Part shown: piece after piece, positions 4,563 to 47,553 of the stretch
How the letters are laid out: each line of letters starts with the position of its first letter
How positions within the stretch are numbered: position 1 is the first letter of the stretch
Assembly: GCA_002706885.1 (NCBI GenBank)
Contig: PAKY01000079.1
Span: forward strand, 1 to 57,712
Reading direction: 5' to 3'
DNA length: 57,712 nucleotides
From: Phycisphaerae bacterium
GTDB taxonomy: Bacteria; Planctomycetota; Phycisphaerae; Phycisphaerales; UBA1924
Notes under the pieces: generated by a model
The model's input: the letters and a program-made list of their open reading frames with translations, nothing else
The model's database searches: none
What the model was told of the DNA's origin: nothing
Translations under genes and position numbers: made by a program

Positions 4563-6296
4563 TCAATCCTCGCCGAGCGTTTCGCGGAGGACCTCGTCCA
4601 CCGACGTCACGCCCTCGTAGATGGCGAGCAGGCCGCACTCGCGGAGGCTCCTCATCCCCCGGCGCCTGGCGTGTTCACGCAGCACGGCCGTGCTCGCTTC
4701 CTTCATGATGAGTTCGCGCATGTTGTCGTCGAGCGACATGATCTCGAAGAGGGCCATCCGGCCCTTGTAACCACCGCCGACGCGATCGGTCCGTCCCGGC
4801 CTCGAGAACTTGCGGTCGCCGATCTCCTCCCGGGTGATCTGGAGCTCCATCAGTTCCTCGTCGGAGGGGACGTAGAGCTCCTTGACCGCGGGGTCGAGGC
4901 GGCGAACGAGACGCTGGGCGACGATGCCCTCGATGGTCGCGGTCAGGAGGAACGGCTCGATGCCGAGGTCCACGAGACGGATGATCGAGCTCGGGGCGTC
5001 GTTCGTGTGGAGGGTCGAGAGCACAAGGTGGCCGGTCAGGGAGGCCTGCACGGCGATCTGGGCGGTCTCGAGGTCGCGGATTTCACCGACGAGGATCACG
5101 TCGGGGTCCTGACGGAGGAAGGAGCGGAGCGCCTTGGCGAAGGTGAGCCCGACTTCGTCGTTGACCTGCACCTGGCAGAGGCCGTCGATGTCGTACTCGA
5201 CGGGGTCTTCGGCGGTGAGGATCTTGGTCTTGATGTCGTTGAGGTGGGCGAGCGCGGCGTAGAGCGTGGTGGTCTTGCCCGAGCCGGTCGGGCCCGTGAC
5301 CACGACGATGCCGTTGGGCTTGTGGATGAGGCCGAGGGTCTTGTTGAAGTCGTCCTCGCGCAGGCCGACGCGGTCGATGCTCAGCTCGACATTGGAGCGG
5401 TCGAGCACACGCATCACGACGCTCTCGCCGTAGATGGTCGGGAGGACGGCGACGCGGAGGTCGACCGGGAGGCCGCCGACCTTCAGTTCGATGCGGCCGT
5501 CCTGCGGCAGGCGGCGTTCGGCGATGTCGAGCTCGGCCATGACCTTGACGCGGCTGGTGATGGCGGAGCCGAGGTGCTTGGGCGGCGGGACCATTTCATA
5601 GAGGACGCCGTCGATGCGGTAGCGCATCTTGAACTCGTTCTCGAACGGCTCGAAGTGGATGTCGCTCGCGCGGTCCTTGATGGCCTGAAGGAGCACGAGA
5701 TTGAGGAGTTTGACGACCTGGTTGTCGTCGGCGGCCTCCATGACGGCGTCGAGGTCGATCGAGGCGTCGGAGTGCTCGCCGAGGGAGGCGAAGCGCTCGT
5801 CGCCCGCGAGGGCGCTGACGACGTCGACCATCGACTCGGACTTGGAGAAGTGCTCCTTGATGAGCCCCTCGATCGCGTCGGGGTCCCCCACGACCGCTTC
5901 GACCTTGAAGCCCATGAGCAGGCGGAGGTCGTCGACGGCGTGAAAGTTATCCGGGCTCTTGAGGGCGACCTTCAGCCGCTTCGTCGCCTTGTCGTACTCG
6001 ATCGGGAGGACGTGGTAGGTGTTCACGTTCTCGGCGGGGACGGCGTCCAAGGCGTCCTGCGGGATCGTGATCTTGGAAACGTCCACGTACTTCATGCCGG
6101 CCTGGCCGGCGAGAGCCTCCTGGAGATCGAGCTGGGTGATGGTTCCCATCTCGACGAGGATCTCGCCGATCTTCTTGCCGGCGGCGGACCCGTCCTTTTG
6201 CTTGGTGAGGCCTTCATGGACCTGTTCGCGCGTGCACTTGCCGAGCTTGACGAGCACGCGCCCAAGCTTGCGACCTTTGAGTTCGGAAGGGTCCAT
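4563..6296 (-). CDS. pilB: Type IV pilus assembly / GspE-type ATPase (PilB-like)
   Basis: This 577-residue hexameric secretion ATPase has an N-terminal MshEN/GspE-N region (residues about 1-150; MshEN domains bind c-di-GMP in some relatives) followed by the T2SSE motor domain. Walker A GPTGSGKTTTLY lies near residue 335, and the Asp box and Walker B regions (VILVGEIRDLETA) and His box (LVLSTLHTNDA) are intact. No tetracysteine zinc motif is visible; most PilB/GspE proteins carry four Cys between the Walker motifs, and here that stretch has none. The gene is followed at 80 bp by the GspF gene. It is one of two such ATPases in this operon; the other is at 7657-9378. Confidence 0.93.
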   Translation of the reverse strand: MDPSELKGRKLGRVLVKLGKCTREQVHEGLTKQKDGSAAGKKIGEILVEMGTITQLDLQEALAGQAGMKYVDVSKITIPQDALDAVPAENVNTYHVLPIEYDKATKRLKVALKSPDNFHAVDDLRLLMGFKVEAVVGDPDAIEGLIKEHFSKSESMVDVVSALAGDERFASLGEHSDASIDLDAVMEAADDNQVVKLLNLVLLQAIKDRASDIHFEPFENEFKMRYRIDGVLYEMVPPPKHLGSAITSRVKVMAELDIAERRLPQDGRIELKVGGLPVDLRVAVLPTIYGESVVMRVLDRSNVELSIDRVGLREDDFNKTLGLIHKPNGIVVVTGPTGSGKTTTLYAALAHLNDIKTKILTAEDPVEYDIDGLCQVQVNDEVGLTFAKALRSFLRQDPDVILVGEIRDLETAQIAVQASLTGHLVLSTLHTNDAPSSIIRLVDLGIEPFLLTATIEGIVAQRLVRRLDPAVKELYVPSDEELMELQITREEIGDRKFSRPGRTDRVGGGYKGRMALFEIMSLDDNMRELIMKEASTAVLREHARRRGMRSLRECGLLAIYEGVTSVDEVLRETLGED

Positions 6297-6370
6297 TCTT
6301 TCACCGCCTTGTCGCGTGCTCCGCGACGCTGTGGAAGCCTATTCGCACCGGGATGGGGCGTGTTTTGACA

Positions 6371-6400
6371 ATCCTACTTCAAAATCCAGGCAAAGATCAA
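6371..6400 (-). promoter_or_regulatory. Candidate sigma-70-like promoter for the PilB-like ATPase gene
   Basis: Read on the minus strand, TTGATC (6400-6395) and TAGGAT (6376-6371) are separated by 18 bp, about 75 bp upstream of the ATPase start. The 190 bp between the PilT-like and PilB-like genes is clearly more AT-rich than its surroundings. This suggests a second promoter inside the pilus locus. The call rests on motif match only. Confidence 0.4.
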
Positions 6401-6487
6401 TAAGACAGTCGGTATGTGTCGCATTCTGCGCACAGAGACGAAGATAAATGCAAATAAACGCCTACCGCCGGGGCGGCGGAGATGAAA

Positions 6488-7606
6488 TCACTCTTCATCG
6501 TCCTCGCCGCCAAGGAGTTCAGGGCGGCTGATCTGGCCACCCGCCGCGAGGACCTTGTCACGGAGGCCGGCCTGGTTCTTGCCCTTGTCGATCATGTCCT
6601 CGGCGCTGATCCAGCCCTTGCTGTAGAGCGACCAGAGGTGGTCGTCGAGGAGCTGCATGCCGTAGCGCTTGCCGGTCTGGATCATCGAGTCGATTCGGAA
6701 GCTCTTGTTGTCGCGGATGAGGTTGGCGATGGCGGGGGTGATGACGAGGAACTCGTAGGCCGCGACGACGCCCTTGATGTCCACGCGGCGCATCAGCACC
6801 TGGGAGAGGATGGCGATGAGGGCGGTGGAGAGCTGGACACGGATCTGGTTCTGCTGGCTGACGGGGAAGGCGTCGACGAGTCGGTCGATGGTCTTGGCGG
6901 CGCCCGTGGTGTGGAGGGTACCAAACACAAGGTGACCGGTTTCGGCGGCTCGGACGGCGGCCTCGATCGTCTCGAGGTCTCGCATTTCGCCGACGAGGAT
7001 GACGTCCGGGTCCTGTCGGAGGGCGCGGCGGAGGGCTTCGGCGAAGCTCGGGACGTCGCTGCCGACCTCCCGCTGGTTGACGATCGACTTCTTGTGGTAG
7101 TGGTAGTACTCGATCGGGTCTTCCATCGTGATGATGTGCCGCTCGAGGTACTGGTTGACGTAATCGATCATCGTGGCGAGCGAGGTGGTCTTTCCCGAGC
7201 CGGTTGGACCGGTGACGAGGAAGAGACCTCGGGGCCGTCGGATGAGGTCCTTAACCATGTCGGGGAGGCCGATCTGGTCGAAGGTCAGCAGCTTGGTCGG
7301 GATCTGTCGGAGGACGATCGCGAGGTCGCCACGCTGACGGAAGACGGACACTCGGAATCGGGCGGCGTCGCCGTACGCGAAGCCGAAGTCGGAGCCGCCT
7401 TCTTCCTGGAGTTCCTGCTGGTTCCGCTCGGGCGTGATCGACTTCATGAGCGTGACCATGTCGTCGCTGTCGAGGACCTTGGTCTGCAGGTTGCGCAGGC
7501 CGCCGTGCATGCGGATGGTCGGCTGGCGCCCCACGGTGAGGTGGAGGTCGGCCGCGCCGAGCTTGACGACGGTGTCGAGGAGCCGGTCGATCTGCATCGT
7601 TGACAA
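6488..7606 (-). CDS. pilT: Type IV pilus twitching/retraction ATPase PilT
   Basis: This 372-residue protein has the typical PilT length. The N-terminus (IDRLLDTVVKLGAADLHLTV) is the PAS-like domain seen in PilT. The motor domain has Walker A GPTGSGKTTS near residue 133, the Asp box, Walker B region VILVGEMRDLET and the His box HLVFGTLHTTGA. The AIRNLIRE-type PilT signature appears as AIANLIRD. The family powers depolymerisation of the pilus and hence twitching. The C-terminus is acidic. It lies between two assembly-type ATPases in the same orientation, about 50 bp downstream of the first. Confidence 0.94.
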   Translation of the reverse strand: MSTMQIDRLLDTVVKLGAADLHLTVGRQPTIRMHGGLRNLQTKVLDSDDMVTLMKSITPERNQQELQEEGGSDFGFAYGDAARFRVSVFRQRGDLAIVLRQIPTKLLTFDQIGLPDMVKDLIRRPRGLFLVTGPTGSGKTTSLATMIDYVNQYLERHIITMEDPIEYYHYHKKSIVNQREVGSDVPSFAEALRRALRQDPDVILVGEMRDLETIEAAVRAAETGHLVFGTLHTTGAAKTIDRLVDAFPVSQQNQIRVQLSTALIAILSQVLMRRVDIKGVVAAYEFLVITPAIANLIRDNKSFRIDSMIQTGKRYGMQLLDDHLWSLYSKGWISAEDMIDKGKNQAGLRDKVLAAGGQISRPELLGGEDDEE

Positions 7607-7656
7607 AGTGCACCACCTTCCGGGCGCCCGGGTCGGCGCCGATCAGCTCTGGTCAA

Positions 7657-9378
7657 TCAGTCCTGTTCGGAAGCCACCTGGCTGACGCGGGCGATCTCGT
7701 CGGCGGTCGTGACGCCGTTGAGGACCTTGATCTTGCCGTCGTAGACGAGGGGCTTCATGCCGCCGGCGAGGGCGGCGCGCCTGAGCTCGGCCACGGGGGC
7801 GAGCTTGAAGGCGAGGTCGCGGATCTCGGCGCTCATCATCATCATCTCGAAGACGCCTTTTCGTCCCTTGTATCCGCCCGGGGCGGCGTCGCAGGGGACG
7901 GGCTTGTAGACCTTGCCGAGGGCTTCTTCGACGGTGAGATCGATGAGGCTGAGGTACTTGGGGTCGAGGTCTTCGCGCTCGGCCAGCTTCTTCGAGGGGT
8001 CGTAGAGGACTCGGATGAGTCGCTGCGCGAGGATGGCCTGGATCGAGCTGGCGACGAGGAAGGGCTTGATGCCCATGTCGATCAGTCGGGTGATGGCCGA
8101 GGGGGCGTCGTTGGTGTGGAGGGTCGAGAAAACAAGGTGGCCCGTGAGGGCGGCCTGGATCGCGATCTCGCCGACTTCACGGTCTCGGATTTCGCCCACG
8201 AGGATGATGTTGGGGGCCTGGCGGAGCATCGATCGGAGGATCGAGGGGAAGCCGAGGCCGATGTCGTCGCGGACCTGGCACTGGTTGATGCCTTCGAAGT
8301 TGTATTCGACCGGGTCCTCGGCGGTGATGATCTTGCGGTCGGGTCGGTTGAGGACGTCGAGGGCTGAGTAGAGGGTGGTTGTCTTGCCCGAACCGGTCGG
8401 GCCCGTGACGAGGAAGATGCCGTTGGGGCGGCGGATGATGCGGTTGAAGGTATCGAGGTTCTCGGGCTCGAAGCCGAGGTTTGAAAGGCCGATGCGGACG
8501 GCGTCGGGGCGGAGGATACGGAGGACGACGCTTTCGCCGTGGTAGGTCGGGCAGGACGAGACGCGGTAGTCGATGTCGACGTCGTCGACGTTGAGCTTGA
8601 TGCGGCCGTCCTGCGGGACGCGCTTCTCGGCGATGTTGACGCCCGCGAGGAGCTTGAGGCGGCTGAGCATGGCATTTTGCATGCGCTTCGGGAGGTTGTC
8701 ACGCTCCATGCAGACGCCGTCGATTCGGTAGCGGAGGCGCACGCGGTCGCCCATGGGCTCGACGTGAATATCGCTCGCTCGCATCCGCACGGCCTCGGAG
8801 AGGATGCGGTTGACGAGACGGACGACCGGTGAGTCCTCGCCCGTGACGTCGATGGACTTGTCCATCGAGCGATCGACGGAGCGGTCGATGGTCCGGTCGA
8901 TCGAGTCGGTGACGAGGGACTGATCGCTCGAGACGGCGGCGGTGCCCTGCTGGTGCTGCTCGAGGAAGCGGCGGATCTGGGCGCGGCTCGCCATGTGGAG
9001 GTCGAGCTCGGTGTTGAGGCGGAAGCGGAGGTTGTCGAGCAGTTCGAGGTTCATGGGGTCATGGACCACGAGCTTCATCTTGCCGTTCTGCTTGCCCATG
9101 GGCAGAACGTGGTACTTCTTGATGATGCCCTCGTCGATCGCCTTGAGGTCGATCTGGTCGGAGACGCCCGCGGCGGCGAGGTCGACGTAGGGGAGCTTGA
9201 ACTGCTCGGCGAGGGCCTTGGAGACCTGCTCCTCGCTCGCGAAGCCCTCGTCGATAAGGGACTCGCCGAGGCGTTTGCCGGACTTCTTCGCGACCTTGAC
9301 AGCCTTCTCGATCTGCGCGGAGTTCGCGACCCCCCAGCCGACCAGAATCTCGCCCAGCTTCTTCTTGCTTCGTGCCAT
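7657..9378 (-). CDS. Second GspE/PilB-type secretion ATPase with MshEN domain
   Basis: I place the start at 9378, where MARSKKKLGEILVG aligns with the usual MshEN beginning; the open frame extends upstream to 9561 but encodes unlikely sequence. The 573-residue protein has an N-terminal MshEN domain (LGEILVGWGVANSAQIEKA), a serine-rich linker with repeated DRTIDRSVDRSMDKS-like units near residues 155-185, then the motor domain with Walker A GPTGSGKTTTLY near residue 326 and VILVGEIRDREV-like Walker B (here IILVGEIRD). It is the first gene of the leftward pilus operon and a paralogue of the ATPase at 4563-6296. Two assembly ATPases could serve separate machines or alternate states. Confidence 0.92.
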   Translation of the reverse strand: MARSKKKLGEILVGWGVANSAQIEKAVKVAKKSGKRLGESLIDEGFASEEQVSKALAEQFKLPYVDLAAAGVSDQIDLKAIDEGIIKKYHVLPMGKQNGKMKLVVHDPMNLELLDNLRFRLNTELDLHMASRAQIRRFLEQHQQGTAAVSSDQSLVTDSIDRTIDRSVDRSMDKSIDVTGEDSPVVRLVNRILSEAVRMRASDIHVEPMGDRVRLRYRIDGVCMERDNLPKRMQNAMLSRLKLLAGVNIAEKRVPQDGRIKLNVDDVDIDYRVSSCPTYHGESVVLRILRPDAVRIGLSNLGFEPENLDTFNRIIRRPNGIFLVTGPTGSGKTTTLYSALDVLNRPDRKIITAEDPVEYNFEGINQCQVRDDIGLGFPSILRSMLRQAPNIILVGEIRDREVGEIAIQAALTGHLVFSTLHTNDAPSAITRLIDMGIKPFLVASSIQAILAQRLIRVLYDPSKKLAEREDLDPKYLSLIDLTVEEALGKVYKPVPCDAAPGGYKGRKGVFEMMMMSAEIRDLAFKLAPVAELRRAALAGGMKPLVYDGKIKVLNGVTTADEIARVSQVASEQD

Positions 9379-36424: not shown

Positions 36425-37234
36425 TTACAGCCGCCCACTCATCACCGCGACCAGCGTCCCCACCGCGAGCACGCCGCACAGCATCACGGCAACGATCAAC
36501 CAGCGCTGACTCGATCGCACGAGACCCGCAAGCTCCTGCTCCCGCGCCGCGTCCGTTTCCCGCATCGATGAGATCGACTCACCGAGATCGCGTGTCGCCG
36601 TCGAAACGCCGTGCATCGATTCGCCGAAGGCGTTGACCGACGCCGCGAGCTCGCGTTCAGCCTCGCCCGACTTCTGGACCGCCGACTGCACGCTCATCAT
36701 CGCGGACGTCTGCTGCTGCGCCGCCTCGAGCTGCTGGATGGCCGTTTTCGACAGACGATCGGCAGTGGTCTTGGCGTCGACCTGGCCAGCCTTGGTCAGC
36801 TCAACGAGCTGCACGATCGCGTCCGCGACGCGTCGGTTCTGCTCCGCGAGCTCCGGCAAAGCATCGAGCTTCCGGCTCGACGCCTCGGCGATCGACATCA
36901 TCCGATCGGCGCGATCGCGTTGCTCATCGAGATGCCCGTCGACCTTGCGGACGAGCGTGAGCACCTCGGTGTAGTTCTTCTGAAGCTCGCCGATGAGCTC
37001 GGCGCGGTTCTTCGGAGCGACGATCGGCGCCTGCTCGCGACGCTCGCCGTCCGATTCGATCACGTCAGCGTCGATGTCGTCCATCGATCCGACCGCCATC
37101 CGAGACAGATCGTGACGCCCGCCGTGCGACGAACCGTTCGAGTCAGCGCCCGCGAAATCGTGCGGCGCGACAGGCTCGGTCGCCACCTTCCCGGACCCAC
37201 GGAACAGCCGAAAGATCGCCTCAACCACGCCCAT
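36425..37234 (-). CDS. C-terminally membrane-anchored coiled-coil protein
   Basis: This 269-residue protein is not a recognised family. The N-terminal 75 residues are low-complexity and acidic. Residues about 75-235 are a long coiled coil (NRAELIGELQKNYTEVLTLV to STATRDLGESISSM), and a single hydrophobic segment near the end (WLIVAVMLCGVLAVGTLVAVM) leaves a short tail. The pattern resembles the helical signalling part of methyl-accepting proteins or secretion-linked spacers. It lies 130 bp downstream of the large FtsK-like ATPase gene in the same direction, so it may be part of that module. Confidence 0.7.
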   Translation of the reverse strand: MGVVEAIFRLFRGSGKVATEPVAPHDFAGADSNGSSHGGRHDLSRMAVGSMDDIDADVIESDGERREQAPIVAPKNRAELIGELQKNYTEVLTLVRKVDGHLDEQRDRADRMMSIAEASSRKLDALPELAEQNRRVADAIVQLVELTKAGQVDAKTTADRLSKTAIQQLEAAQQQTSAMMSVQSAVQKSGEAERELAASVNAFGESMHGVSTATRDLGESISSMRETDAAREQELAGLVRSSQRWLIVAVMLCGVLAVGTLVAVMSGRL

Positions 37235-37366
37235 CGCTCACGTCTCCTTCCGTGCCCCCGAACGCATCGGGCCGGCCTCCTGCCACGCCCGCCGGTGTGA
37301 CCGCCTCCGGGCCACTGACCAGCCTAGATCCCGCTTCCGCAATCGGCAACGGCCCCGCGCCGCTCC

Positions 37367-40300
37367 TCAGCCCCGAAGCCGCTCCAGGAGCCCCGGATCG
37401 GGCATCCGATACGGTCGGAATTTCTCCAGCGTCCCCAGTTCTTCGTTGAACAGCAGCCCGCGATTCATCCCGAGCTTGCCCGCGGCGGGCGTGTCGATCA
37501 GGTTGCTCGAATCCGAGGCCCCCATCTGGAGCACCGCCCGCTGCTCGAACTCCCCGATCGCCTGCCGCGACATGATCCGCGTCAGGTTCGAGTAGGTGTC
37601 GCACCACACCACCGCGTGCAGCCCCAACGACGGCCCGTCACGCACAATGTCGGCGAACTGCTGAGAAGGGTCGGCGCCGGACGAATCGTCATCGTCCGAG
37701 GCGCTGAACGAGAAGTTGAACTCGTCCTCCTTCTTGCGAAGGGCCCGCAGCCGTTGGAGGCCGTGGACCATGAGCACGATCGGCGGATGACCCGTCGGAT
37801 CGGCGTCGCGACGCTCTCGCTCCGCGTCGAGTTCGCTCAGGACGCCCGCAGCATCTCGCGCCCCCACCACCTCGATGTCGACGCCGGTCACGTGCCGCGC
37901 CGACTCCGCGAGGTCGCCGAGCGATTCGGCGTCGGGGTCGTCGGGAGGAGTCGTGTCGATGAAGCGGATCGAGCCGCCGCGGGACTTCATCTGAGCCGCG
38001 AGCCCGAGCAGAGCAGAGCCCATCATCGCCCGGGACGTCTCGTCCTGTTGCCCGACGATGAGCAGGTTCGCCCCCGCCTGACGACTCAACGTACCCGCCG
38101 TCGCGTCCTTGATCGCTACCGGCTCGCCGAGCCACGCGAGCAGCGGCCCACGCCCCACGACGCCGCCCTCAGCCGGCGCCGCTTCGAGTGCTTCGGTGAG
38201 CAGGTGGTTCCGAGCGAGGTCGGCCGCGACATTGCCCTCGAAGACGATCTGGGGGTGCGGCGGCTCCCAATCGGATTTCGCGACGCGATCGCAGACCGCG
38301 TCGAGCGCCGCGTCGCGGTCGACGTCGGCGAGCCAAGCCACCTGGAACGGGTTGTTGCCTTCGAGCAGTCCGTTCGCGTCGTTGTAGATCGCCTCGCCCG
38401 GTCGGCTGAGCAGCCTCGCCGCGGCGTTGTCTTCGCTGAGGATGAGGTAGCTGTCGGTTTCCGAGCACTGCAGCGCGATCCTGACCGCCATCTGCCCCAC
38501 GGTGCTCCGCGCGAGCGTGTAGGCGCCGCTGAGGGTCTGGCTCCCGAGCAACACGTGCATGCCGAACGCGCGGCCCTGTCGGACGAGTCGGTCGAGCAGC
38601 AGCGCCGCGTCCTGGGCGATCGAGTCGTCCTCGGTAAAGAATTCCTGGAACTCGTCGATGATGAGCAGCACGCGGGGCAGATGCTCGTCGGGCGCCTCTC
38701 GCCGCGCCGCCGCGAGGGACTGCGCGCCGTGGGCACGGAAGAGGTCACCCCGCCGCTTGAGCTCGTTGTCGAGGCGTCGCAGGACGCTCAGGCCGAACTC
38801 GCGGTCGGACTCGACCGCCACGGCGCGGCAATGAGGCAGCCGATCGTCGGCGTAGGCCTTGAACTCGACGCCCTTCTTGAAGTCGACGAGGTAGAGCTCG
38901 ACCTCGCTCGGCGAATACCACAGCCCGGCGTTCGTGATGATCACGTGCAGAAGCGTGCTCTTGCCCGAGCCCGTCTTGCCCGCGATCAGGGCGTGCTGAC
39001 TCGTGCCGCGCCCGAGCATGAGGCGCTGGAGCTTGGTCGCACCGGCGCGTCCCACGCTGACCGAGAGTTCCTCCGACGCGTCGGCCGACCAGACGTCGCT
39101 GTCGTCGGGCGAGAGCCTGGAGAACGGCACCTCGACGCGCCCGGCGGTATGGGCGCCCTCGCCGATCCGATCGAGCAGATCGGCGATCTCAGCATCGTTC
39201 GGAGGCGTCTCAACAACGAGCGGGAGACCGTCGTAGTCCGCATCGTCAGGCGCGAATCCGTCGGCGCCGCCGTCGACCAGCACGCTCGCGCCGGAGCGGA
39301 GCGTGTCGTAGCTGATGGTGTCCGGGAGCTTTGCGGACGGGTCACCTTGAACGAGGGTGTAGACGCCGCAGCGAGGGCCGCTCTCGACGATGCTCGCGAG
39401 GCGTCTGGCCGCTTCGTCGCTGAAACCCTTCGGAAAGTCTGCGACCACGAGGAAGCGGTACGGCTCGGCGATCTCACCCGCCGCCGCGTTGTACGCCTCG
39501 ATCGAGTCGAACTCGTTGCGGAGGTACTTCTGGATCACCGTTTCCATGTGCTCGGTGAGATCGCTCAGCCGCTGTTCGATGTGGCGGAGTTCGGTCCAGA
39601 TCCGGCTGGTGACGAGCTTCTCGTCGTGATCCGCAAGGCGCATGAACCCCGCGAAGCTCTGCCCCAGGCCGACGGGGTCGATCATCGTGAAACGCGCCTT
39701 GCCGGGTGGGAGGCACGTCAGGAGGCGGAGCATCGCGTTGCGGATCGTCTCGAGACCGCGATCGCGGGTCGCGGGTCCTGAGAGAACCAGAAGCGACGAT
39801 GGCCCCGGGAAGTCGAGCAACGCCGGGGCGTCGAACGCCGGCGGAAGCTCGTTCATCATCTCGGGCTCGTCGGGAAGCCCCCCTTCGAGGCTCGCGACGT
39901 CGATGCTGTACCGCCCGTAAGCGATCGCGGGGAACAACTCGCTCGATAGCTCGGACGAACGGAGCGTCTCGGGCCACGATGGGCACGAAACGGCGGCCCG
40001 CTCGTTGACGAACGCGAGCTCGGTCGCGATCGACCCGTACCCCTCACGCCACGCGCGGCGGAGCGCATCGGCTCGCTCGACGCGACGTCGCTCCGCGACG
40101 TCGATCGCCTCGTCACGCTTCTTACTCAGAGCCGCGGACTCTGTCTCGAATTCGGAGCGGATCGAGGCCTCGCGATCGCTCGCTTCGGTCTCAAACCGCT
40201 GGGCCTCGGCCCGGTGTTCGGAATCGATCGACTCGGATTCCTCGCGGTGCTTCCGATCGACGGTCTCGACTTCACGCTCGCGTTCCTCGACGAGCTTGTC

Positions 40301-41338
40301 GACACGCTTGAGGTATTTGTCGCGCTGCTTGCTGACCTCGGTCTCGTGCCGCTCGCGGATTTCACGTTCGGCCTTGTTGCGGAAGGTCACCGCCGATTCC
40401 ACGGCCTCGTGGGCGAGAGAGCGGGCGTAGCGGAGGCGTTGCTCGATCGGCGCGACCTGGGCGCGCATGCGGGCGAGTTCGATGCGACGCGCGGGCCATG
40501 TCAGCAGAACGAGGACGGCCCCCCCGCCGAGGATCATGCCGCCGATCTTGGCCCCCTCGATCGCGTCCCCTTCGATCATGCCGACGATGAACCCGACGAA
40601 GATCGCCCCGATGAGCGCGAGCGCGATGACGCCGATCTGGAGCCCGTTCTCGAATAGCCAGTGGATCCACGCGATGCGGAGCGAGCGGTAGCGGGTCTCA
40701 ATGTCCTGTCGGAGCAGGATGAGGCGGTCCAGGGGCGGGGACTCTCCCTCGAACGCGATCCCGTGGTCCTCGTCGGGTTCGGCCTCGGTGTCGATCGGCA
40801 CGCGCCGCCCCGCGACGCGCCGGACCGCGCCCTCGAGCGCGAGGAGCGTTTCCAGCTCGGCCCGAGCTTCTCGACGGACGCGTTCGACCTCCTGCGACGG
40901 GTGCGATCGGCCCGCGTCGGTCACCGCTTCCGCAAGGAACTTCGCGTCCCGGAGGCCCTTCTCGGCCTTTTTCTGTGAGGCGTCGAGACGGGCGACAAGC
41001 GAGGTTCGTTCGCGTTCGTGCTTCGCCGTCGCTTCTCGAAGGCGGGCCTCGTACAGGGCCGACATCTCGGCGGACCCCCGTTGCCGTGCCTTGCTCGCCC
41101 GAGCCAGATCCTCGTCACGCTTCCGGGTCAGCGCGCCGAGCGAGGTTTCGTGTTCAGAGTGGGCAGACTCGGTCGCGGAGCGGTGGTCCTCCTCGATCGA
41201 TGCCTGTTCCTCGGCGCGGTATCGAGCGAGGTCGCGCAACGCTCGTACCGCCGCTCGGCACCGCTGCGCGACGGTGACCGGACCGGCTTCGGCGGTGTCC
41301 GCGACGGGGTTCAGATCTGGTGAGTCGGCGATGGTCAT
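37367..41338 (-). CDS. FtsK/EssC-like ATPase with coiled coils (type VII-like)
   Basis: This 1323-residue protein has coiled coils (residues about 35-150 and 300-425) around two membrane segments (232-256 and 264-283), then three tandem FtsK/SpoIIIE-like domains. Only the middle domain has an intact P-loop (GKTGSGKST, 787-795) and Walker B (LLIIDEF, Asp895-Glu896). The first (GPATRDRG near 515) and third (GQQDETSR near 1093) are degenerate. Three P-loop domains behind two membrane segments recall EccC/EssC of type VII secretion, but no FHA domain is seen. Upstream genes encode WXG-like proteins. A role in protein export is inferred; DNA pumping is less likely given the context. Confidence 0.85.
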   Translation of the reverse strand: MTIADSPDLNPVADTAEAGPVTVAQRCRAAVRALRDLARYRAEEQASIEEDHRSATESAHSEHETSLGALTRKRDEDLARASKARQRGSAEMSALYEARLREATAKHERERTSLVARLDASQKKAEKGLRDAKFLAEAVTDAGRSHPSQEVERVRREARAELETLLALEGAVRRVAGRRVPIDTEAEPDEDHGIAFEGESPPLDRLILLRQDIETRYRSLRIAWIHWLFENGLQIGVIALALIGAIFVGFIVGMIEGDAIEGAKIGGMILGGGAVLVLLTWPARRIELARMRAQVAPIEQRLRYARSLAHEAVESAVTFRNKAEREIRERHETEVSKQRDKYLKRVDKLVEEREREVETVDRKHREESESIDSEHRAEAQRFETEASDREASIRSEFETESAALSKKRDEAIDVAERRRVERADALRRAWREGYGSIATELAFVNERAAVSCPSWPETLRSSELSSELFPAIAYGRYSIDVASLEGGLPDEPEMMNELPPAFDAPALLDFPGPSSLLVLSGPATRDRGLETIRNAMLRLLTCLPPGKARFTMIDPVGLGQSFAGFMRLADHDEKLVTSRIWTELRHIEQRLSDLTEHMETVIQKYLRNEFDSIEAYNAAAGEIAEPYRFLVVADFPKGFSDEAARRLASIVESGPRCGVYTLVQGDPSAKLPDTISYDTLRSGASVLVDGGADGFAPDDADYDGLPLVVETPPNDAEIADLLDRIGEGAHTAGRVEVPFSRLSPDDSDVWSADASEELSVSVGRAGATKLQRLMLGRGTSQHALIAGKTGSGKSTLLHVIITNAGLWYSPSEVELYLVDFKKGVEFKAYADDRLPHCRAVAVESDREFGLSVLRRLDNELKRRGDLFRAHGAQSLAAARREAPDEHLPRVLLIIDEFQEFFTEDDSIAQDAALLLDRLVRQGRAFGMHVLLGSQTLSGAYTLARSTVGQMAVRIALQCSETDSYLILSEDNAAARLLSRPGEAIYNDANGLLEGNNPFQVAWLADVDRDAALDAVCDRVAKSDWEPPHPQIVFEGNVAADLARNHLLTEALEAAPAEGGVVGRGPLLAWLGEPVAIKDATAGTLSRQAGANLLIVGQQDETSRAMMGSALLGLAAQMKSRGGSIRFIDTTPPDDPDAESLGDLAESARHVTGVDIEVVGARDAAGVLSELDAERERRDADPTGHPPIVLMVHGLQRLRALRKKEDEFNFSFSASDDDDSSGADPSQQFADIVRDGPSLGLHAVVWCDTYSNLTRIMSRQAIGEFEQRAVLQMGASDSSNLIDTPAAGKLGMNRGLLFNEELGTLEKFRPYRMPDPGLLERLRG

Positions 41339-41383
41339 GCGATCTTGCAGCGTTCCGCTCCGGCGAGGCGTTCGAGACGACGA

Positions 41384-41602
41384 TCAGTCGGGCGCGGTCG
41401 CCCGATCCGCCCTGGCGGCGATCGACGCAAGGTGGTCCATGGCTTCAACCGCGGTCCGGATCTTCGGCGCGAGCGGCTCGAGGAACTCCGCCTCGTAGCG
41501 TCGTGCCACCTCGTCGTCCCAGTCGTAGCGAGCGCGTTGCCATGCCTCCTTCAGTTTCTTGGCTCCGTCCGCCACCATACCGCGACTCACGCTGAGGCTC
41601 AT
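41384..41602 (-). CDS. WXG-like small helical protein
   Basis: The 72-residue protein has two helices joined by a WDD turn: KLKEAWQRARYDWDDEVARR, then FLEPLAPKIRTAVEAMDHLA. The Trp-turn at residues 28-30, the length and the helical hairpin pattern fit the WXG100 superfamily, though Gly is replaced by Asp. It begins in the stop of the upstream coiled-coil gene (ATGA overlap at 41599-41602) and lies 45 bp before the ATPase gene. A secreted or structural partner of the ATPase is likely but unproven. Confidence 0.7.
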   Translation of the reverse strand: MSLSVSRGMVADGAKKLKEAWQRARYDWDDEVARRYEAEFLEPLAPKIRTAVEAMDHLASIAARADRATAPD

Positions 41603-42117
41603 TCAACTTCCTCCCGCATCTCACTCGTTTTGCGCCGTTTGGAGCCGATAGCCGCATATTCCTCCAGCGAACCTGCCAGACGGTCGAGCTCGGCGACCGC
41701 TCGGGGGAGGTCGGCGCTCACCGCAGACTTGAGGCTCTGGACGGCTCCCGAGAACTTTGTCTGCTCCTTGTCGAGCACGCGGATCCAGCGGCGGGTCTCC
41801 TCGTACTTCGACTCCGCCTCCTTGAGACGACGCTGGGCCTTCTCGAGCGCCTTGCGGTCGTCGACCGTCGCCCGCGCGTCCTCGCGGACGACCGCCTTGA
41901 TGCTGATCTCGCTCCGGGCGCGCTGCACCTCGTCATGGCGGACCCGGATCTGCTTCTTCCAGTAGGGGAGACGCTCGGAGCGGAGACGCTGGAGGACGCG
42001 CCCCGCGTCGGCCTCGGCGGAGGTCAGGGCTGCGTTGCAGGCCTCGGAGAACTCGACCAGAGCGGGTCGGAACCCCCGGAGGCTTTCGATCGCGTGCACC
42101 CGAGCCTTGTCCGCCAC
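41599..42117 (-). CDS. Coiled-coil protein of the type VII-like module
   Basis: I place the start at a GTG at 42117 with GGAGGG eight bases upstream; the frame extends further up but through another gene. The 172-residue protein is almost all helical and highly charged (QRARSEISIKAVVREDARAT, KALEKAQRRLKEAESKYEE). It is between the two WXG-like genes, 20 bp after the first and overlapping the second by four bases. Length and helix content recall longer type VII substrates or chaperones, such as LXG-associated helical proteins. Function is not known. Confidence 0.75.
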   Translation of the reverse strand: MADKARVHAIESLRGFRPALVEFSEACNAALTSAEADAGRVLQRLRSERLPYWKKQIRVRHDEVQRARSEISIKAVVREDARATVDDRKALEKAQRRLKEAESKYEETRRWIRVLDKEQTKFSGAVQSLKSAVSADLPRAVAELDRLAGSLEEYAAIGSKRRKTSEMREEVE

Positions 42118-42137
42118 GGCAGGAGCCCTCCGACGCC

Positions 42138-42410
42138 TCAACGCTGCTTGAGGTATTCCTCGATCCGCTCGGCCTTGCGCAGCAGGAACGGGATGTGCTG
42201 CTCGGCGGAGTCGCTGAACCGAGCGAGCGCTCGGAGCGTGTCCTCGAATTCCGATTGGAACTTGGCGTGTTCCTGATCCCGCCACGTCTGACCGAGGCTG
42301 ATCATCTGGCCCTGCATCTGGGCCATCGAGCCGTTGAGGCCCGTAAGGAACTTCTTGAGCGACATCGCGAAGTGTCGTAACTCATCGGGATCGACGACTG
42401 CCTTGGCCAT
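42138..42410 (-). CDS. WXG100-like protein
   Basis: The 90-residue protein has the WXG100 length and hairpin: helix 1 (LRHFAMSLKKFLTGLNGSM), a turn with SLGQTWRDQEHAKFQSEF around Trp43-Arg-Asp45, and helix 2 to the end (AERIEEYLKQR). The motif is WXD instead of WXG. A GGAGG lies before the ATG. It is the first gene of the leftward cluster with the large FtsK-like ATPase. By family knowledge WXG100 proteins are dimeric substrates or factors of type VII secretion. Confidence 0.78.
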   Translation of the reverse strand: MAKAVVDPDELRHFAMSLKKFLTGLNGSMAQMQGQMISLGQTWRDQEHAKFQSEFEDTLRALARFSDSAEQHIPFLLRKAERIEEYLKQR

Positions 42411-42505: not shown

Positions 42506-43723
42506 TCAGGGCTGGTCATCCGCCGAGCCCTCGTTCGAGGGTTCTTCGGCTGGCGTGGTCGTCGGTTCATCCTCGCTGTCGTCCGGTTCGCCGGCGCTCG
42601 CCGCAGCTTCGGCGGCCTCGCGTCGCTTCCGTAGCGTCTGCTTCGACGCCTCGGAGACCAATTCCGAACGCGCGTGGCGGAATCGGTTGGCGGCGAACTC
42701 GGGCGCCTTGAAGGCAAACCCGCCGACGCGATCGTTCAGGTCGTTCGCCTGTCGCGCCGCCTCCTCCGTCGCGTCGTCAGCGGTCGTCGCGTCGAACGCC
42801 ATCCATGCTCCGCTGTCGTCCGCGGGAAACACGCGGACGCGGAGGCGGAGGCCGTCGTTCGAAATGTACGTGAGCGTCGTGAGCGGTTCGGTCGACGCGA
42901 TGTCGTCTGTCCGAGCGATGTCCACCGTGCGTAGGTAGTCGAGTGCGCTGGCAATCGACCCACCGAGCGTGAGTGAGGTCATCTCCTCGTTCTCGGCGAG
43001 CGTCTCAAGACGGAAAGGGATCACGTTCGATGGTCCGAGGGTCTGCTCGCCGTCGGGCGTCGGGATCAGCGTGTAGTCACCGTCGGGCCTTGTTACCTCG
43101 ACACGGGCGACGTCGGCGCGGCGCATCCGCACGATGGGATCGGGGACCCAACGCATCGGGTTGGCTTCGACGGCGACGACGCCCTCGACCAGGTAGGTCT
43201 GGTTCTCTCGGGCGTCGCGGAGGTAGAGCCGGGAGGTCTCCGCCTGGTACGTCGACCCGCCGACGATCGCGTCGGCCATCAGGTCCGAGCCGTTGTCGCG
43301 GGAGATCCGAATCCGCATGGGGCCCTCGCCCGGGCGGCCCTCGCCCGAGAACGGGTTGGGCTCGTTGAGGAACAGCGTTGCGTGGTTGGCCGGGTCGGCG
43401 GTCTTCGGTTCTATGACTCGGACCCTTGCGAGGCCGACGATGAGGCGGCGGAGCTTTTCACGCTCGACCGGAAAATCGCCGCGGACGGGCATGACCCAAG
43501 CGTCGCCATCGCGGCGGAACGCGAGTTGGCCGCGGTTGGTGATGATCTCGATGTGGTCGGCCGCGTCGGCGTTGTCGACGAGGACCGGGAAGACCAGGTC
43601 GCCCGCGCTCCGCAGCGATTCGTTCCCCTGCGTCGCCGCGTTCTGGCCCTGGACGACAAACCACGCGCCCGCGACCGCGGCGAGGCACACGACGAGCAGG
43701 AGGAGTAGCCACACCGGTTTCAT
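42506..43723 (-). CDS. DUF4340-domain membrane-anchored protein
   Basis: The 405-residue protein has one N-terminal membrane segment (LLLLLVVCLAAVAGAWFVV), then an extracytoplasmic DUF4340 region with repeated beta-rich units (EIITNRGQLAFRRDGDAW, FPVEREKLRRLIVGLARVRV). A Glu/Pro/Thr-rich C-terminus ends it. DUF4340 proteins follow GldG-like genes in Gld-type ABC operons, as here: the GldG-like gene is 21 bp upstream. Precise role unknown; a periplasmic partner of the exporter is likely. Confidence 0.88.
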   Translation of the reverse strand: MKPVWLLLLLVVCLAAVAGAWFVVQGQNAATQGNESLRSAGDLVFPVLVDNADAADHIEIITNRGQLAFRRDGDAWVMPVRGDFPVEREKLRRLIVGLARVRVIEPKTADPANHATLFLNEPNPFSGEGRPGEGPMRIRISRDNGSDLMADAIVGGSTYQAETSRLYLRDARENQTYLVEGVVAVEANPMRWVPDPIVRMRRADVARVEVTRPDGDYTLIPTPDGEQTLGPSNVIPFRLETLAENEEMTSLTLGGSIASALDYLRTVDIARTDDIASTEPLTTLTYISNDGLRLRVRVFPADDSGAWMAFDATTADDATEEAARQANDLNDRVGGFAFKAPEFAANRFRHARSELVSEASKQTLRKRREAAEAAASAGEPDDSEDEPTTTPAEEPSNEGSADDQP

Positions 43724-43744
43724 GGATTGCTCCTTCGCGAGGAA

Positions 43745-45739
43745 TCAGCCCTCGCCGCGGCGTCGATCGGCGCGGCGACGGATCGCTCGGAAGCCGCCGA
43801 GACCGAGGGCGAAGAGACAGAGGAGGGCGGGGACCATCGCGGTGTTGATGAGCATGACGCGGGTCTTGAGGTTCTCGATGTCGCGGCGGAGTCGGTAGAC
43901 CACCTCGCGTCGCCTCGTTCGGCCCTCGCCGCGGGCCCGCTGGGCGGCCTCGAGCTGCTCCTGCTGCTCGGGGGTGAGGTACAGCGAAGTGATCTCGCCC
44001 GAGTCGGTGCGTCCGCTCTGGAGTTCGGAGATGCGCTGTTCGGCCTCGCGGATCTGCTCGTTGACGAGTTCGGTCTCGGCGGCGATCGCGGTCTGCGCCT
44101 CGCGCTCCATCTGGTCGAGCTTGTCGAGCGGTCGGAAGACGCGGCCGCGAGCGCGGAGCGTGATCAGGTCGCCCGAACCGGCCATCTGGTCGACGATGTT
44201 CGTGACGAACGGTCCGCTGTCGCTGAACTGGTCGTAACCGAAGATCATCGAACCCGCGCGGATCTCGCGAACCCAGAAATCGTCGGCGATCAGGTCAACG
44301 TCCGCGACAACGACGATGTTGACAGGCGCCGAAGACTGCGAGAGGTGGCCACTCGTGTTTGCATCGGCGGGCGCCCTGTCCGATTCGGCGTCATCGGCGA
44401 CGCCATCGCTTTCGCTCTCGGCCTCGCCGTCGGTCGCGCCGCCGGGCGGGCCGTCCGGGAACGCGGAAGGGACGCTGTCGCCTCGGACGCGTGCGGCAAG
44501 GGTGAAGCGTTCACCCGAGGGGACGAACGTCGCCAGGAGGGCGTCCTGATCCGGGAGGACAGCGGCCTTCGCGGTCGGCACGGCCTGCGATTCGGCCGTG
44601 GTCCTGAGGAGAGGCTCGACATCGACCGGCGCGTCGCTCGCGACGTCGATGATGCCCGGGGTGCCGACCCAGATGTCGTTGAGCCGTCCCGTCACGGGGT
44701 CCTCGCGCGAGACGCGGCTGTCCTCGCCTTCGCCCGCGGTCAGGGCGAGGTACTGGAGCGCGGGGATGGTCCGGTTCTGCTGCTGGGACGGGAACTGGAG
44801 GGCGCTGCCGAGGTCGAGCGCGACGCGGTCCTCGCGGAGCGAGACGCCCCACGCCTCGAGCGTCGGGATCGTCTGGCTTGCGCGGTCGAGGCCGTAGACG
44901 GACATTGGCTCGCGGGGGGCGGCGCCGATGGGGTCGAGCTCGGCGGCGGGGTCGAGGAAGAACGCGGCGGGTCGACCCGCGAGGAGGTATTGGTCGATCG
45001 AGTAGAGGAGCGAGTCGCCGAGGTTCTTGGGATGCACAACGAGGAGCGCGTCGAGATCATCGGGGAGGGCCGCGGCCTGCTCGTCGATGCGGACGACGTC
45101 GAACTGCTGCTCGATCTCGGCGATGACGCGGAAGGGCTGCGAGCCGGGCTGACGGAGCGCCGGATTCGGCGGCTGGCCCTGAAGCTGGATAGGGGAGATG
45201 AGGCCGAGCGTGGGTCGCTTCGTGTTCGCGAGCCGATCGATGATCCGAGCGATCTCGAACTCGAGGAACTGTTCGAGCTGCGGATCCTGGATGTTGAAAA
45301 CGGGGATGAGTTCGCGTCCCTCGAGCGTGTTGGTCGCGAGGAGTCCGAGGAAGACGTTGCCGTCCTGCGTCGGCAGGGGCGTGAGGCCCTCGGCGATGGC
45401 TCGGTCCTCGGCCTCGCTGCTGGGCTCGGGGTCGATGACCTCGAGGATGACCTTGCCGTCGCTCGCGAGCTCGAACTGGCGGAGCTTCTCCTCGATGAAG
45501 TCGGCGCGGGCCGCTACGCCCGGGATGTCCTTGACGAGGCCGCGGGAGATGTAGAGGCGGAGGCGGATCGGCTCCGCGGGCGAGCGAGCGACGCGGCCCG
45601 CGGCCTCGCTCAGCGTGTAGATGCCCTGCTCGGTGAGGTCGATTCGGGCTCGGCCGAGCGTCGATGTCGCGAGCACGTTGATCGCCACGAACAGGACCGC
45701 GACGAGGAGAGTGACGATGAGTGTGGTCAGCTTGCCCAT
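43745..45739 (-). CDS. GldG-like ABC transporter auxiliary protein
   Basis: The 664-residue protein begins with a membrane segment (LIVTLLVAVLFVAINVLATS) and ends with another (INTAMVPALLCLFALGLGGF), with a large extracytoplasmic part in between. GldG-type features are RIDLTEQGIYTLSEAAGRV near residue 35 and VILEVIDPEPSSEAEDRA near residue 100. A Glu-rich insert is near residues 440-460 and a coiled coil (MEREAQTAIAAETELVNEQI) before the last segment. It follows the permease gene by 36 bp. In gliding Bacteroidetes GldG works with GldA and GldF; elsewhere such operons have an unknown substrate. Confidence 0.9.
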   Translation of the reverse strand: MGKLTTLIVTLLVAVLFVAINVLATSTLGRARIDLTEQGIYTLSEAAGRVARSPAEPIRLRLYISRGLVKDIPGVAARADFIEEKLRQFELASDGKVILEVIDPEPSSEAEDRAIAEGLTPLPTQDGNVFLGLLATNTLEGRELIPVFNIQDPQLEQFLEFEIARIIDRLANTKRPTLGLISPIQLQGQPPNPALRQPGSQPFRVIAEIEQQFDVVRIDEQAAALPDDLDALLVVHPKNLGDSLLYSIDQYLLAGRPAAFFLDPAAELDPIGAAPREPMSVYGLDRASQTIPTLEAWGVSLREDRVALDLGSALQFPSQQQNRTIPALQYLALTAGEGEDSRVSREDPVTGRLNDIWVGTPGIIDVASDAPVDVEPLLRTTAESQAVPTAKAAVLPDQDALLATFVPSGERFTLAARVRGDSVPSAFPDGPPGGATDGEAESESDGVADDAESDRAPADANTSGHLSQSSAPVNIVVVADVDLIADDFWVREIRAGSMIFGYDQFSDSGPFVTNIVDQMAGSGDLITLRARGRVFRPLDKLDQMEREAQTAIAAETELVNEQIREAEQRISELQSGRTDSGEITSLYLTPEQQEQLEAAQRARGEGRTRRREVVYRLRRDIENLKTRVMLINTAMVPALLCLFALGLGGFRAIRRRADRRRGEG

Positions 45740-45775
45740 GACGAGCGACTCAGCCCCCGCTTGTTCGGCGCGTTC

Positions 45776-46552
45776 TCACGAAGCCTTGTTCGAGTCGATG
45801 ACGCAGGTGTTGATGATCAGCAGGCCGCCGATCAGCGTGAGGAAGAAGATGACGGCGGGCGCCCCGATCACGCCGCGCTGGAAGCCGGCGAACTGGGTCA
45901 CGACGCTGAACTGATTGAGCGTGTCGGTGAGCCAGAGCGGCAGATCGGTCGGCGAACCGGCGTCCTGATCGAACCACGACGCGACGAACGCGACCGCCCC
46001 TGGAAGAAAGCGTGGGAGAAGGACGGCGAAACAACCGACCACGCTCAGCACGAAGGCGATGACCTGGCTCTTGGTCAGCGAGCTGAGGGCGGAACCGATG
46101 GCGAGGAATCCGCCCGCCATCAGGAAGCTGCCGAAGTAGCTCGCGGCGATCGCGCGGTTGTCGGGCTCGCCGAGCTGGTTGACGGTGATCCAGAGCGGGA
46201 AGGTCAGGGCGAGCGCGATCGCGGTGAACGCCCACGCCGCGAGGTACTTGCCCAGGACCGCCGCCCACGGCCTGATCGGAAGCGTCATGAGCAGCTCGAT
46301 CGTGCCGCTCCGCCGTTCCTCGGCCCACAGACGCATGGACAGCGCGGGGATGAGGAAGAGGTAGAGCCAGGGGTGGAACGAGAAGAAGCCCGTCAGGCCC
46401 GCCTGTCCGCGCTCGAAGAAGCTGCCGAGCCCCTCCGTGAAGGTGAAGACGCCGCAGAGCACGAGGAAGATCACGATGAAGACGTAGGCGACGGGGGTCG
46501 CGAAGTACCCGCCGAGCTCACGCTTCAGAACGGAAGTCATCGCGCCCATCAA
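45776..46552 (-). CDS. ABC transporter permease (GldF-like)
   Basis: The 258-residue protein has about six membrane segments and an ABC-2 permease pattern: LKRELGGYFATPVAYVFIVI at the N-terminus, LRLWAEERRSGTIELLMTLP (here MRLWAEERRSG) near residue 80, and GSFLMAGGFLAIGSALSSLT. The EERRSGTIELLMTLP stretch is a signature of GldF/NosY-type permeases. It overlaps the ATPase gene by four bases (ATGA). It forms the membrane channel of the exporter. Confidence 0.93.
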   Translation of the reverse strand: MMGAMTSVLKRELGGYFATPVAYVFIVIFLVLCGVFTFTEGLGSFFERGQAGLTGFFSFHPWLYLFLIPALSMRLWAEERRSGTIELLMTLPIRPWAAVLGKYLAAWAFTAIALALTFPLWITVNQLGEPDNRAIAASYFGSFLMAGGFLAIGSALSSLTKSQVIAFVLSVVGCFAVLLPRFLPGAVAFVASWFDQDAGSPTDLPLWLTDTLNQFSVVTQFAGFQRGVIGAPAVIFFLTLIGGLLIINTCVIDSNKAS

Positions 46553-47553
46553 CTCTCGCTCCCGCTGGTATCGCTCGATGCGGCGGCCGGCGTTCGATCG
46601 GCTGGCCGCGCCTGGGTGGTCGTGATGTCACGGAAGACCTCGTCGAGCTTGCCCTGCTCGACCGTGAACTCGTCGAGCGTGAGACCTCGCTCGCGGACGA
46701 CGCGTCCGACCTCCGGCGCGACCTGACGGCCGTTGATCGGGCGGACCCGGCAGACCATCGTCGCGCCCGCGGCGTCTTCGGAGCCGGACAGGCGTTCGAC
46801 GTCGGCGACGCCCTGCACGGAGCGGAGGGTCTCCATCAGCCCGTCGATCGCGCCGCTGACGCGGATGCGGACGGCGTTGTGGCCCGGGGCCCGCGATCTG
46901 AGATCACCCGGCGTGCCATCGGCGAGGAGCTTGCCTCGGGCGATGACGACGGCGCGGGTGCAGACCGCTTCGACTTCCTCGAGGATGTGCGTCGAGAGGA
47001 TGACGCACTTGCGGCCCGCCATCGAGCGGATCAACTCACGGACCTCGTGCTTCTGGTTCGGGTCGAGTCCGTCGGTGGGTTCATCGAGAATGAGGATGTC
47101 GGGATCGTGGAGGAGCGCCTGGGCCAGTCCGACACGGCGCTTGTAGCCCTTGCTGAGCGTCTCGATGGGCTGACGCATCACGCCGCGGAGCTGCGCGAGG
47201 TCTTCGACGCGCTCGATCGCGGACTTGGTCGCGGCGGCTGACATCCCGCGGACAGACGCGACGAACTTCAGGAAGCCCACCGGGGTCATGTCGGGGTAGG
47301 CGGGGGCGCCTTCGGGCAGGTATCCGATGACACGCTGCACATCGAGGGGATGCGCGACGACGTCGTGGCCGCCCACGCGAGCCTTGCCGCCGCTCGGGCG
47401 GAGGAAACCCGTGAGCATCTTCATCGTGGTGCTCTTGCCCGCGCCGTTGGGGCCGAGGAAGCCGAGCACCTCGCCCTTCTCGACCTTGAGGTCGATGCCA
47501 TCCACCGCTCGGATGGGTCCGAAGATCTTCTTCAGCTTGCTCGTTTCGATCAT
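46549..47553 (-). CDS. ABC transporter ATP-binding protein (GldA-like)
   Basis: The 334-residue protein has the full ABC ATPase: Walker A GPNGAGKSTTMKML, Q-loop near YLPEGAPAYPDM, signature LSKGYKRRVGLAQALLHDP, Walker B ILILDEPTDGLDP and switch His in ILSTHILEEVE. A C-terminal domain of about 100 residues follows, typical of ABC-2 family drug or gliding exporters. It is the first gene of the operon ATPase-permease-GldG-DUF4340. Confidence 0.95.
   Translation of the reverse strand: MIETSKLKKIFGPIRAVDGIDLKVEKGEVLGFLGPNGAGKSTTMKMLTGFLRPSGGKARVGGHDVVAHPLDVQRVIGYLPEGAPAYPDMTPVGFLKFVASVRGMSAAATKSAIERVEDLAQLRGVMRQPIETLSKGYKRRVGLAQALLHDPDILILDEPTDGLDPNQKHEVRELIRSMAGRKCVILSTHILEEVEAVCTRAVVIARGKLLADGTPGDLRSRAPGHNAVRIRVSGAIDGLMETLRSVQGVADVERLSGSEDAAGATMVCRVRPINGRQVAPEVGRVVRERGLTLDEFTVEQGKLDEVFRDITTTQARPADRTPAAASSDTSGSES

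What the first reader, a model, noticed from the sequence alone, without database searches (positions are those of the whole stretch)
36425..42410. Candidate non-canonical type VII-like secretion module
In one direction lie a 90-residue WXG-like protein (Trp43-Arg-Asp), a 172-residue coiled-coil protein, a 72-residue WXG-like protein (Trp28-Asp-Asp), a 1323-residue three-domain FtsK/EssC-like ATPase and a C-tail-anchored coiled-coil protein. Spacings are 20 bp, a 4-bp overlap, 45 bp and 131 bp. WXG-like proteins beside a tandem FtsK ATPase are the core of type VII secretion, but EccB, EccD, EsaA, mycosin and FHA genes are absent, and both turns read WXD, not WXG. A diderm planctomycete would need a different envelope route.
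Basis: partly seen in the sequence, partly recalled or inferred. Interest (0 to 1): 0.78.

Follow-up and report, generated by a model that had tools for sequence, protein, structure and literature searches.

The report
Minimal type VII-like secretion cassette
Four adjacent genes in a planctomycete encode a stripped-down relative of the type VII protein-secretion machine of Gram-positive bacteria: two tiny hairpin proteins with an invariant Trp-x-Asp turn, a coiled-coil protein and a membrane-anchored motor. The kind was noted in passing in 2012, but the conservation, the motif and the membrane anchor shown here look undescribed.

Summary
The genes are at the stated coordinates and are conserved as a unit: of 93 distinct planctomycete loci, 84 carry all three small genes directly upstream of the ATPase and 9 carry none. 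The 90-aa protein passes Pfam's WXG100 cut-off. The 72-aa protein is modelled as a helical hairpin with its motif in the turn. The motif is WxD in 84/84 copies of both proteins. [quoted passage not shown] its best structural match is the type VII motor EccC. WXG90 occurs in 15/15 ATPase-bearing genomes and 0/25 without it.
Two corrections. The C-tail-anchored fifth gene is not part of the module (one relative in about 114 loci). The kind is not new: Zhang et al. 2012 mention planctomycete 'solo WXG' with a three-FtsK-domain ATPase, and H. pylori HP0062/HP0066 is a known minimal example with WRD.
Apparently new: the invariant WxD pair, a transmembrane hairpin in 98/103 ATPases (absent from five plasmid relatives), and a coiled-coil gene in the slot that holds nuclease-tipped proteins in Helicobacter and Caballeronia, here without a recognised toxin. 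Export is the best explanation, but it is inferred.

The parts
42138..42410 (-). WXG90: 90-aa WXG100-family helical hairpin with W43-R-D45
   Evidence: Pfam WXG100 2.4e-7; profile best PDB match HP0062 2.2e-12; 24/24 orthologues match PF06013
42276..42284 (-). WxD codons of WXG90 (Trp43-Arg-Asp45)
   Evidence: WxD in 84/84 loci
41599..42117 (-). Coiled-coil protein, 172 aa, GTG start; relatives 162-379 aa, the long form with a C-terminal Imm33-like domain
   Evidence: Alignment A3; PF24719 in 7/23, best 5.8e-9; present in 84/93 loci
41384..41602 (-). WXG72: 72-aa WXG-like helical hairpin, W28-D-D30 in the turn
   Evidence: AlphaFold2 pLDDT 95, helices 3-27 and 31-69; nearest folds Esx proteins and HP0062, Z about 8, not discriminating; weak sequence link to WXG100
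41513..41521 (-). WxD codons of WXG72 (Trp28-Asp-Asp30)
   Evidence: WxD in 84/84 loci
37367..41338 (-). EccC/EssC-like ATPase, 1323 aa: N-terminal coiled coil, TM hairpin, second coiled coil, three FtsK-like domains
40499..40630 (-). Predicted transmembrane hairpin of the ATPase (residues 237-280)
   Evidence: hydropathy; two or more segments in 98/103 planctomycete ATPases, no such pair in five plasmid relatives
38339..39106 (-). Middle ATPase domain (residues 745-1000), the only one with intact Walker A (GKTGSGKS) and Walker B (LLIIDEF)
   Evidence: 29-sequence alignment

Best explanation
This is a stand-alone, minimal type VII-like secretion cassette: two small WXG100-type hairpins (WXG90, WXG72), a coiled-coil protein and an EccC/EssC-like ATPase. 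Shown by computation: homology of WXG90 and the ATPase, the hairpin model of WXG72, the gene unit, and the membrane hairpin. Inferred: the ATPase sits in the inner membrane by its TM hairpin, with its motor domains in the cytoplasm, and forms a hexamer as its relatives do. Only the middle domain hydrolyses ATP; the flanking degenerate domains hold or gate it. [quoted passage not shown] The cargo here carries no recognised toxin, so the exported protein is more likely a binding or structural protein than a weapon. No outer-membrane component is encoded nearby, so that step is open.
For: Four-gene unit in 84/93 distinct loci, all or none. WXG90 in 15/15 ATPase-bearing and 0/25 ATPase-lacking genomes. 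WXG90 is above the WXG100 cut-off; its profile fits HP0062 (2e-12) and EsxB (4.5e-8) structures. WXG72 model: hairpin with WxD in the turn. ATPase model (pLDDT 86.8) best matches EccC over 928 columns, E 2.8e-31, against 2.7e-15 for FtsK. TM hairpin in 98/103. The same cassette on Helicobacter and Caballeronia plasmids has a WHH nuclease with an SMI1 neighbour, or a long coiled-coil protein described in CoCoNuT loci as nuclease-tipped, in the coiled-coil slot. Purifying selection.
Against: No direct evidence of secretion for this lineage. TM-less relatives sit in TerY-P/CoCoNuT loci, where a non-classical role has been proposed. No LXG proteins in 15 genomes, only one WXG100 gene in this genome and no coiled-coil paralogue, so few candidate cargoes. 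The coiled-coil protein's relation to LXG or toxin N-termini is positional; sequence support is weak. The WXG72 fold match does not stand above designed hairpins.
Confidence: 0.58

Rival explanations
1. A membrane-tethered machine that does not secrete: the motor uses WXG hairpins as adaptors to remodel or gather coiled-coil partners at the inner membrane, in stress response or defence, as proposed for relatives in TerY-P and CoCoNuT loci.
For: Relatives without TM segments lie in TerY-P/CoCoNuT operons, and the Caballeronia plasmid copy sits between VWA genes with CARF, kinase and phosphatase genes. No recognised toxin or LXG cargo in planctomycetes.
Against: Planctomycete cassettes stand alone: no neighbour family recurs beyond 9 of 111 loci and those seen are ordinary. 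The TM hairpin is conserved. WXG100 proteins of characterised systems are secreted (established knowledge).
Confidence: 0.25
2. A toxin-delivery system whose toxins are encoded elsewhere or unrecognised; the coiled-coil protein is a shared carrier, and its Imm33-like tail in the long form marks a toxin-immunity history.
For: WHH nuclease plus SMI1-family gene in the same slot in Helicobacter; Imm33-like domain in 7/23 coiled-coil proteins.
Against: No LXG in 15 genomes; one WXG100 and one coiled-coil gene in this genome; lengths of 162-379 aa leave no room for a large toxin.
Confidence: 0.1
3. The ATPase is a DNA translocase and the small proteins are its regulators.
For: FtsK motor domains score as high as EccC for a single domain (Z 30.8), and profile scores on that domain overlap.
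Against: Separate lineage from FtsK in the tree (97/91 for FtsK, 94/90 for this group). Three tandem domains match EccC far better as a whole. No FtsK gamma domain found by Pfam. The genome has its own FtsK. Linkage to WXG100 genes.
Confidence: 0.05

Closest known systems
Stand-alone 'solo WXG' systems with a three-FtsK-domain ATPase (Zhang et al. 2012, PMC3482391, table footnote; Anantharaman et al. 2012, as cited in PMC11090510)
   Same: WXG protein plus ATPase with three FtsK/HerA domains, only the middle one active; planctomycetes named
   Different: The footnote gives no genes, second hairpin, WxD motif, coiled-coil partner or TM hairpin; it calls them mobile, whereas these cassettes stand among ordinary, varied neighbours
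Helicobacter pylori HP0062/HP0066 'WXG100 secretion system' (PMC3397514, PMC4978471)
   Same: WXG90 is closer to HP0062 than to any other solved structure; HP0062 has WRD; beside an FtsK/SpoIIIE gene
   Different: The Helicobacter plasmid ATPase examined is 823 aa with no TM pair, and a nuclease gene lies between the small genes; HP0066 itself was not examined
EssC-like operon in type III-A CoCoNuT loci (PMC11090510)
   Same: Central ATPase domain active, N-terminal coiled coil, two WXG100-like proteins, coiled-coil protein
   Different: Described without TM helices and with a nuclease-tipped coiled coil, between VWA genes
T7SSa/T7SSb and T7SSc-j (PMC11217815)
   Same: EccC/EssC motor, WXG100 protein, small WXG-like partners
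   Different: No EssB (EccB not found, control silent); ATPase is a separate lineage; WxD not WxG; diderm hosts; PMC11217815 treats only Gram-positive phyla

Membership tests
Type VII secretion systems (broad sense) | WXG100-family protein | tested here: met
   WXG90 over Pfam's gathering score; below the stricter NCBIfam TIGR03930 cut-off
Type VII secretion systems (broad sense) | Membrane-bound EccC/EssC-type tandem ATPase | tested here: met
   Fold match to EccC, TM hairpin; but a separate branch from EccC in the tree and below NCBIfam EccC cut-offs
Type VII secretion systems (broad sense) | ATPase-dependent export of the WXG100 protein | not testable with these tools
   needs an experiment
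Type VII secretion systems (broad sense) | WxG motif in the turn | tested here: not met
   WxD in 84/84 of both proteins
T7SSb | EssB/YukC | tested here: not met
   0 of 15 genomes; B. subtilis control rings
T7SSb and most T7SSc-j | EsaB/YukD | tested here: not met
   absent from this genome; in 5/15 cassette genomes it lies in another operon
T7SSa | EccB | tested here: inconclusive
   0 of 15, but no control genome rang
T7SSa | EccD, EccE, mycosin | not tested
   no such gene recurs in the neighbourhood; genome-wide search not made
Stand-alone WXG / three-FtsK-domain systems (Zhang 2012) | Three FtsK-like domains, only the middle one active | tested here: met
   Walker A/B intact only in the middle domain across 29 sequences; three domains in the model
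Stand-alone WXG / three-FtsK-domain systems (Zhang 2012) | Solo WXG protein beside the ATPase, outside a full ESX locus | tested here: met
FtsK/SpoIIIE DNA translocases | Position in the FtsK clade | tested here: not met
   separate clade; single-domain tree with several long branches
FtsK/SpoIIIE DNA translocases | C-terminal gamma DNA-recognition domain | tested here: not met
   no such Pfam match

The most novel reading that the evidence does not exclude
Planctomycetota carry a separate, vertically kept subtype of type VII secretion: a membrane-anchored motor with only a pair of WxD hairpins and a toxin-free coiled-coil cargo, working in a diderm envelope without the EccB/D/E or EssA/B parts. 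It would be the smallest such exporter and a model for the ancestral core.
Probability: 0.35. Interest if true: 0.75.

Novelty: new variant of a known kind. Interest (0 to 1): 0.52.

Why it matters
Type VII secretion is usually described for Gram-positive phyla and mycobacteria. A four-gene, membrane-anchored version found across a diderm phylum, with a strictly conserved WxD turn and no recognised toxin, would show what the motor and its hairpin partners can do without the accessory parts. It is testable in cultured planctomycetes such as Singulisphaera acidiphila, where the scan found the cassette.

Tried and rejected
1) Fifth (C-tail-anchored) gene as a component: one relative, in L073, among ~114 loci; dropped. 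2) The upstream ABC/Gld-like operon as a partner: same order only in the window, L072 and L074; dropped as local synteny. 3) YukD as a distributed component: 18/150 class genomes, 13 of them with the ATPase, mostly in one family, in a separate operon in the five loci examined, absent from this genome; rejected as a required part. 4) Defence-family scan with PADLOC: only generic FtsK/HerA and coiled-coil hits. 5) LXG cargo: none in 15 genomes. 6) Homology of the coiled-coil protein with plasmid toxin N-termini: only a Rhodococcus protein scored (3.7e-7 against 26 sequences), the others at noise level; not claimed. 7) Which EccC domain the active one corresponds to: the sequence search aligns it to an early stretch of the 4nh0 construct, while the whole-chain fold alignment runs all three domains along EccC 431-1315; left open. 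8) Anantharaman 2012 could not be read.
Full report
Observation. The 172-aa gene begins with GTG. The 90-aa protein (WXG90) matches Pfam WXG100 at 2.4e-7, over the curated cut-off; NCBIfam's WXG100 model is matched below its cut-off. The 1323-aa protein matches FtsK_SpoIIIE, and its best NCBIfam models are EccCa, EccCb and EssC, all below their equivalog cut-offs. WXG90 is the only WXG100 gene over the cut-off in this genome assembly, which is 91% complete.

Conservation. A search of 150 genomes of the class found the ATPase in 49, and 39 of 294 sampled genomes of the phylum have it. A scan of species genomes gave at least 580 relatives, the best 80 nearly all Planctomycetota, with one Lentisphaerae-labelled contig. 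I called genes around 35 loci and then 80 more. Among 93 distinct loci with at least 2 kb upstream, 84 have WXG90, the coiled-coil gene and WXG72 directly before the ATPase; the other nine have none of the three there. In at least one of these (G084) WXG90 lies about 185 kb away, and in L063 WXG-like genes lie downstream. No other neighbour family recurs in more than 9 of 111 loci. WXG90 occurs once in each of 15 ATPase-bearing genomes and in none of 25 ATPase-lacking relatives. In close pairs dN is far below dS. So the functional unit is four genes. The C-tail-anchored fifth gene has a relative only in L073 and is left out.

The small proteins. In 84 of 84 loci the turn of WXG90 reads WxD (WRD 72, WQD 9, three others), and in 84 of 84 that of WXG72 reads WxD (WND, WDD, WRD and others). 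The profile of WXG90 fits best the solved H. pylori HP0062 (2.2e-12), ahead of EsxB and EsxA. HP0062 has WRD and lies with an FtsK/SpoIIIE gene (PMC3397514). WXG72 has no Pfam match by itself; 4 of 23 relatives match WXG100 weakly, best 0.00073. AlphaFold2 gives helices 3-27 and 31-69 at pLDDT 95, which puts W28-D-D30 in the turn. The nearest folds are mostly Esx proteins and HP0062 (Z about 8, 1.7-1.9 A), but designed hairpins score nearly as high. The WXG-like reading of WXG72 therefore rests on the invariant WxD at the turn plus the fold, not on fold scores alone.

The motor. Walker A and B are intact only in the middle of three FtsK-like domains, in all 29 sequences aligned. The model of residues 462-1323 (pLDDT 86.8, pTM 0.79) matches EccC best over its whole length (E 2.8e-31), with EssC following and FtsK at 2.7e-15; for the middle domain alone FtsK and EccC are tied. 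On a tree of that domain the planctomycete ATPases group with ATPases from Rhodococcus, Caballeronia, Helicobacter and Deinococcus plasmids, most of them beside WXG-like genes (94/90), apart from FtsK (97/91) and from EccC (96/92); several branches are long and the root is arbitrary. Two hydrophobic segments near residues 190-310 occur in 98 of 103 planctomycete ATPases and lie between two charged, coiled-coil-like stretches. The five plasmid relatives lack such a pair, in line with the report that CoCoNuT-linked homologues have no TM helices (PMC11090510).

The coiled-coil protein. It is 162-379 aa long in two size classes. Long forms carry an Imm33-like domain (PF24719, 7 of 23, best 5.8e-9). 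In the Helicobacter plasmid the same slot holds a 340-aa protein with a WHH nuclease domain, followed by an SMI1/KNR4 gene; in the Caballeronia plasmid it holds a 436-aa coiled-coil protein, in a locus like those described as carrying a coiled-coil nuclease. Whether these are homologous to the planctomycete protein is not shown. I infer a cargo or carrier role by position.

Missing parts. EssB was not found in 15 genomes, with a working control; EccB was not found, but the control was silent; LXG was not found. YukD is absent from this genome and, in the five loci examined, lies in a separate operon.

What is known. Zhang et al. [quoted passage not shown] The CoCoNuT paper cites Anantharaman et al. 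2012 for stand-alone WXG100/FtsK operons. The H. pylori pan-genome paper calls WXG and FtsK a minimal T7SS, with HP0062 and HP0066. The survey of T7SSc-j covers Gram-positive phyla only. In the open library I found no account of the WxD invariance, the second hairpin in planctomycetes, the TM hairpin or the all-or-none unit; subscription papers were not searchable.

Verdict. A real, conserved, type VII-like module and a membrane-anchored, apparently toxin-free variant of a kind already flagged. Protein export is the most likely function (0.58), a non-secreting membrane machine the main rival (0.25).

Noticed in passing
L178-L182 (around the YukD hits): Some Phycisphaerae have a conserved operon of a YukD-like ubiquitin, an E1/ThiF-like protein, a JAB/MPN-like protease, a multi-TM protein with an apparent FHA end and an E2-like protein with HPNI...TICVG, beside Wzc-like polysaccharide genes. 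Assignments are by eye apart from YukD.
   Followed up: partly
window 42506-47553: An ABC-2/Gld-like exporter operon (ATPase, permease, ABC_transp_aux, DUF4340) runs directly into the cassette in the same direction; the same order is seen in L072 and L074 only.
   Followed up: partly
L152:4734-9136: Helicobacter sp. plasmid pNHP190012_1 carries the cassette with a WHH nuclease and an SMI1/KNR4 gene between the two small genes, which looks like a toxin-immunity version.
   Followed up: partly
L153:4555-17371: Caballeronia plasmid pSBC2-5 carries the cassette between VWA genes with CARF, PP2C and kinase genes, as described for CoCoNuT/TerY-P loci.
   Followed up: no
L063 (reverse strand, 5716-7965): A rearranged locus: the ATPase is followed, not preceded, by two WXG-like genes, a 351-aa gene and a WXG72-like gene.
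   Followed up: no
coiled-coil genes of L035, L041, L044, L053, L057 and other long forms: The long form of the coiled-coil protein often ends in an Imm33-like domain, unusual on a presumed secretion cargo.
   Followed up: partly
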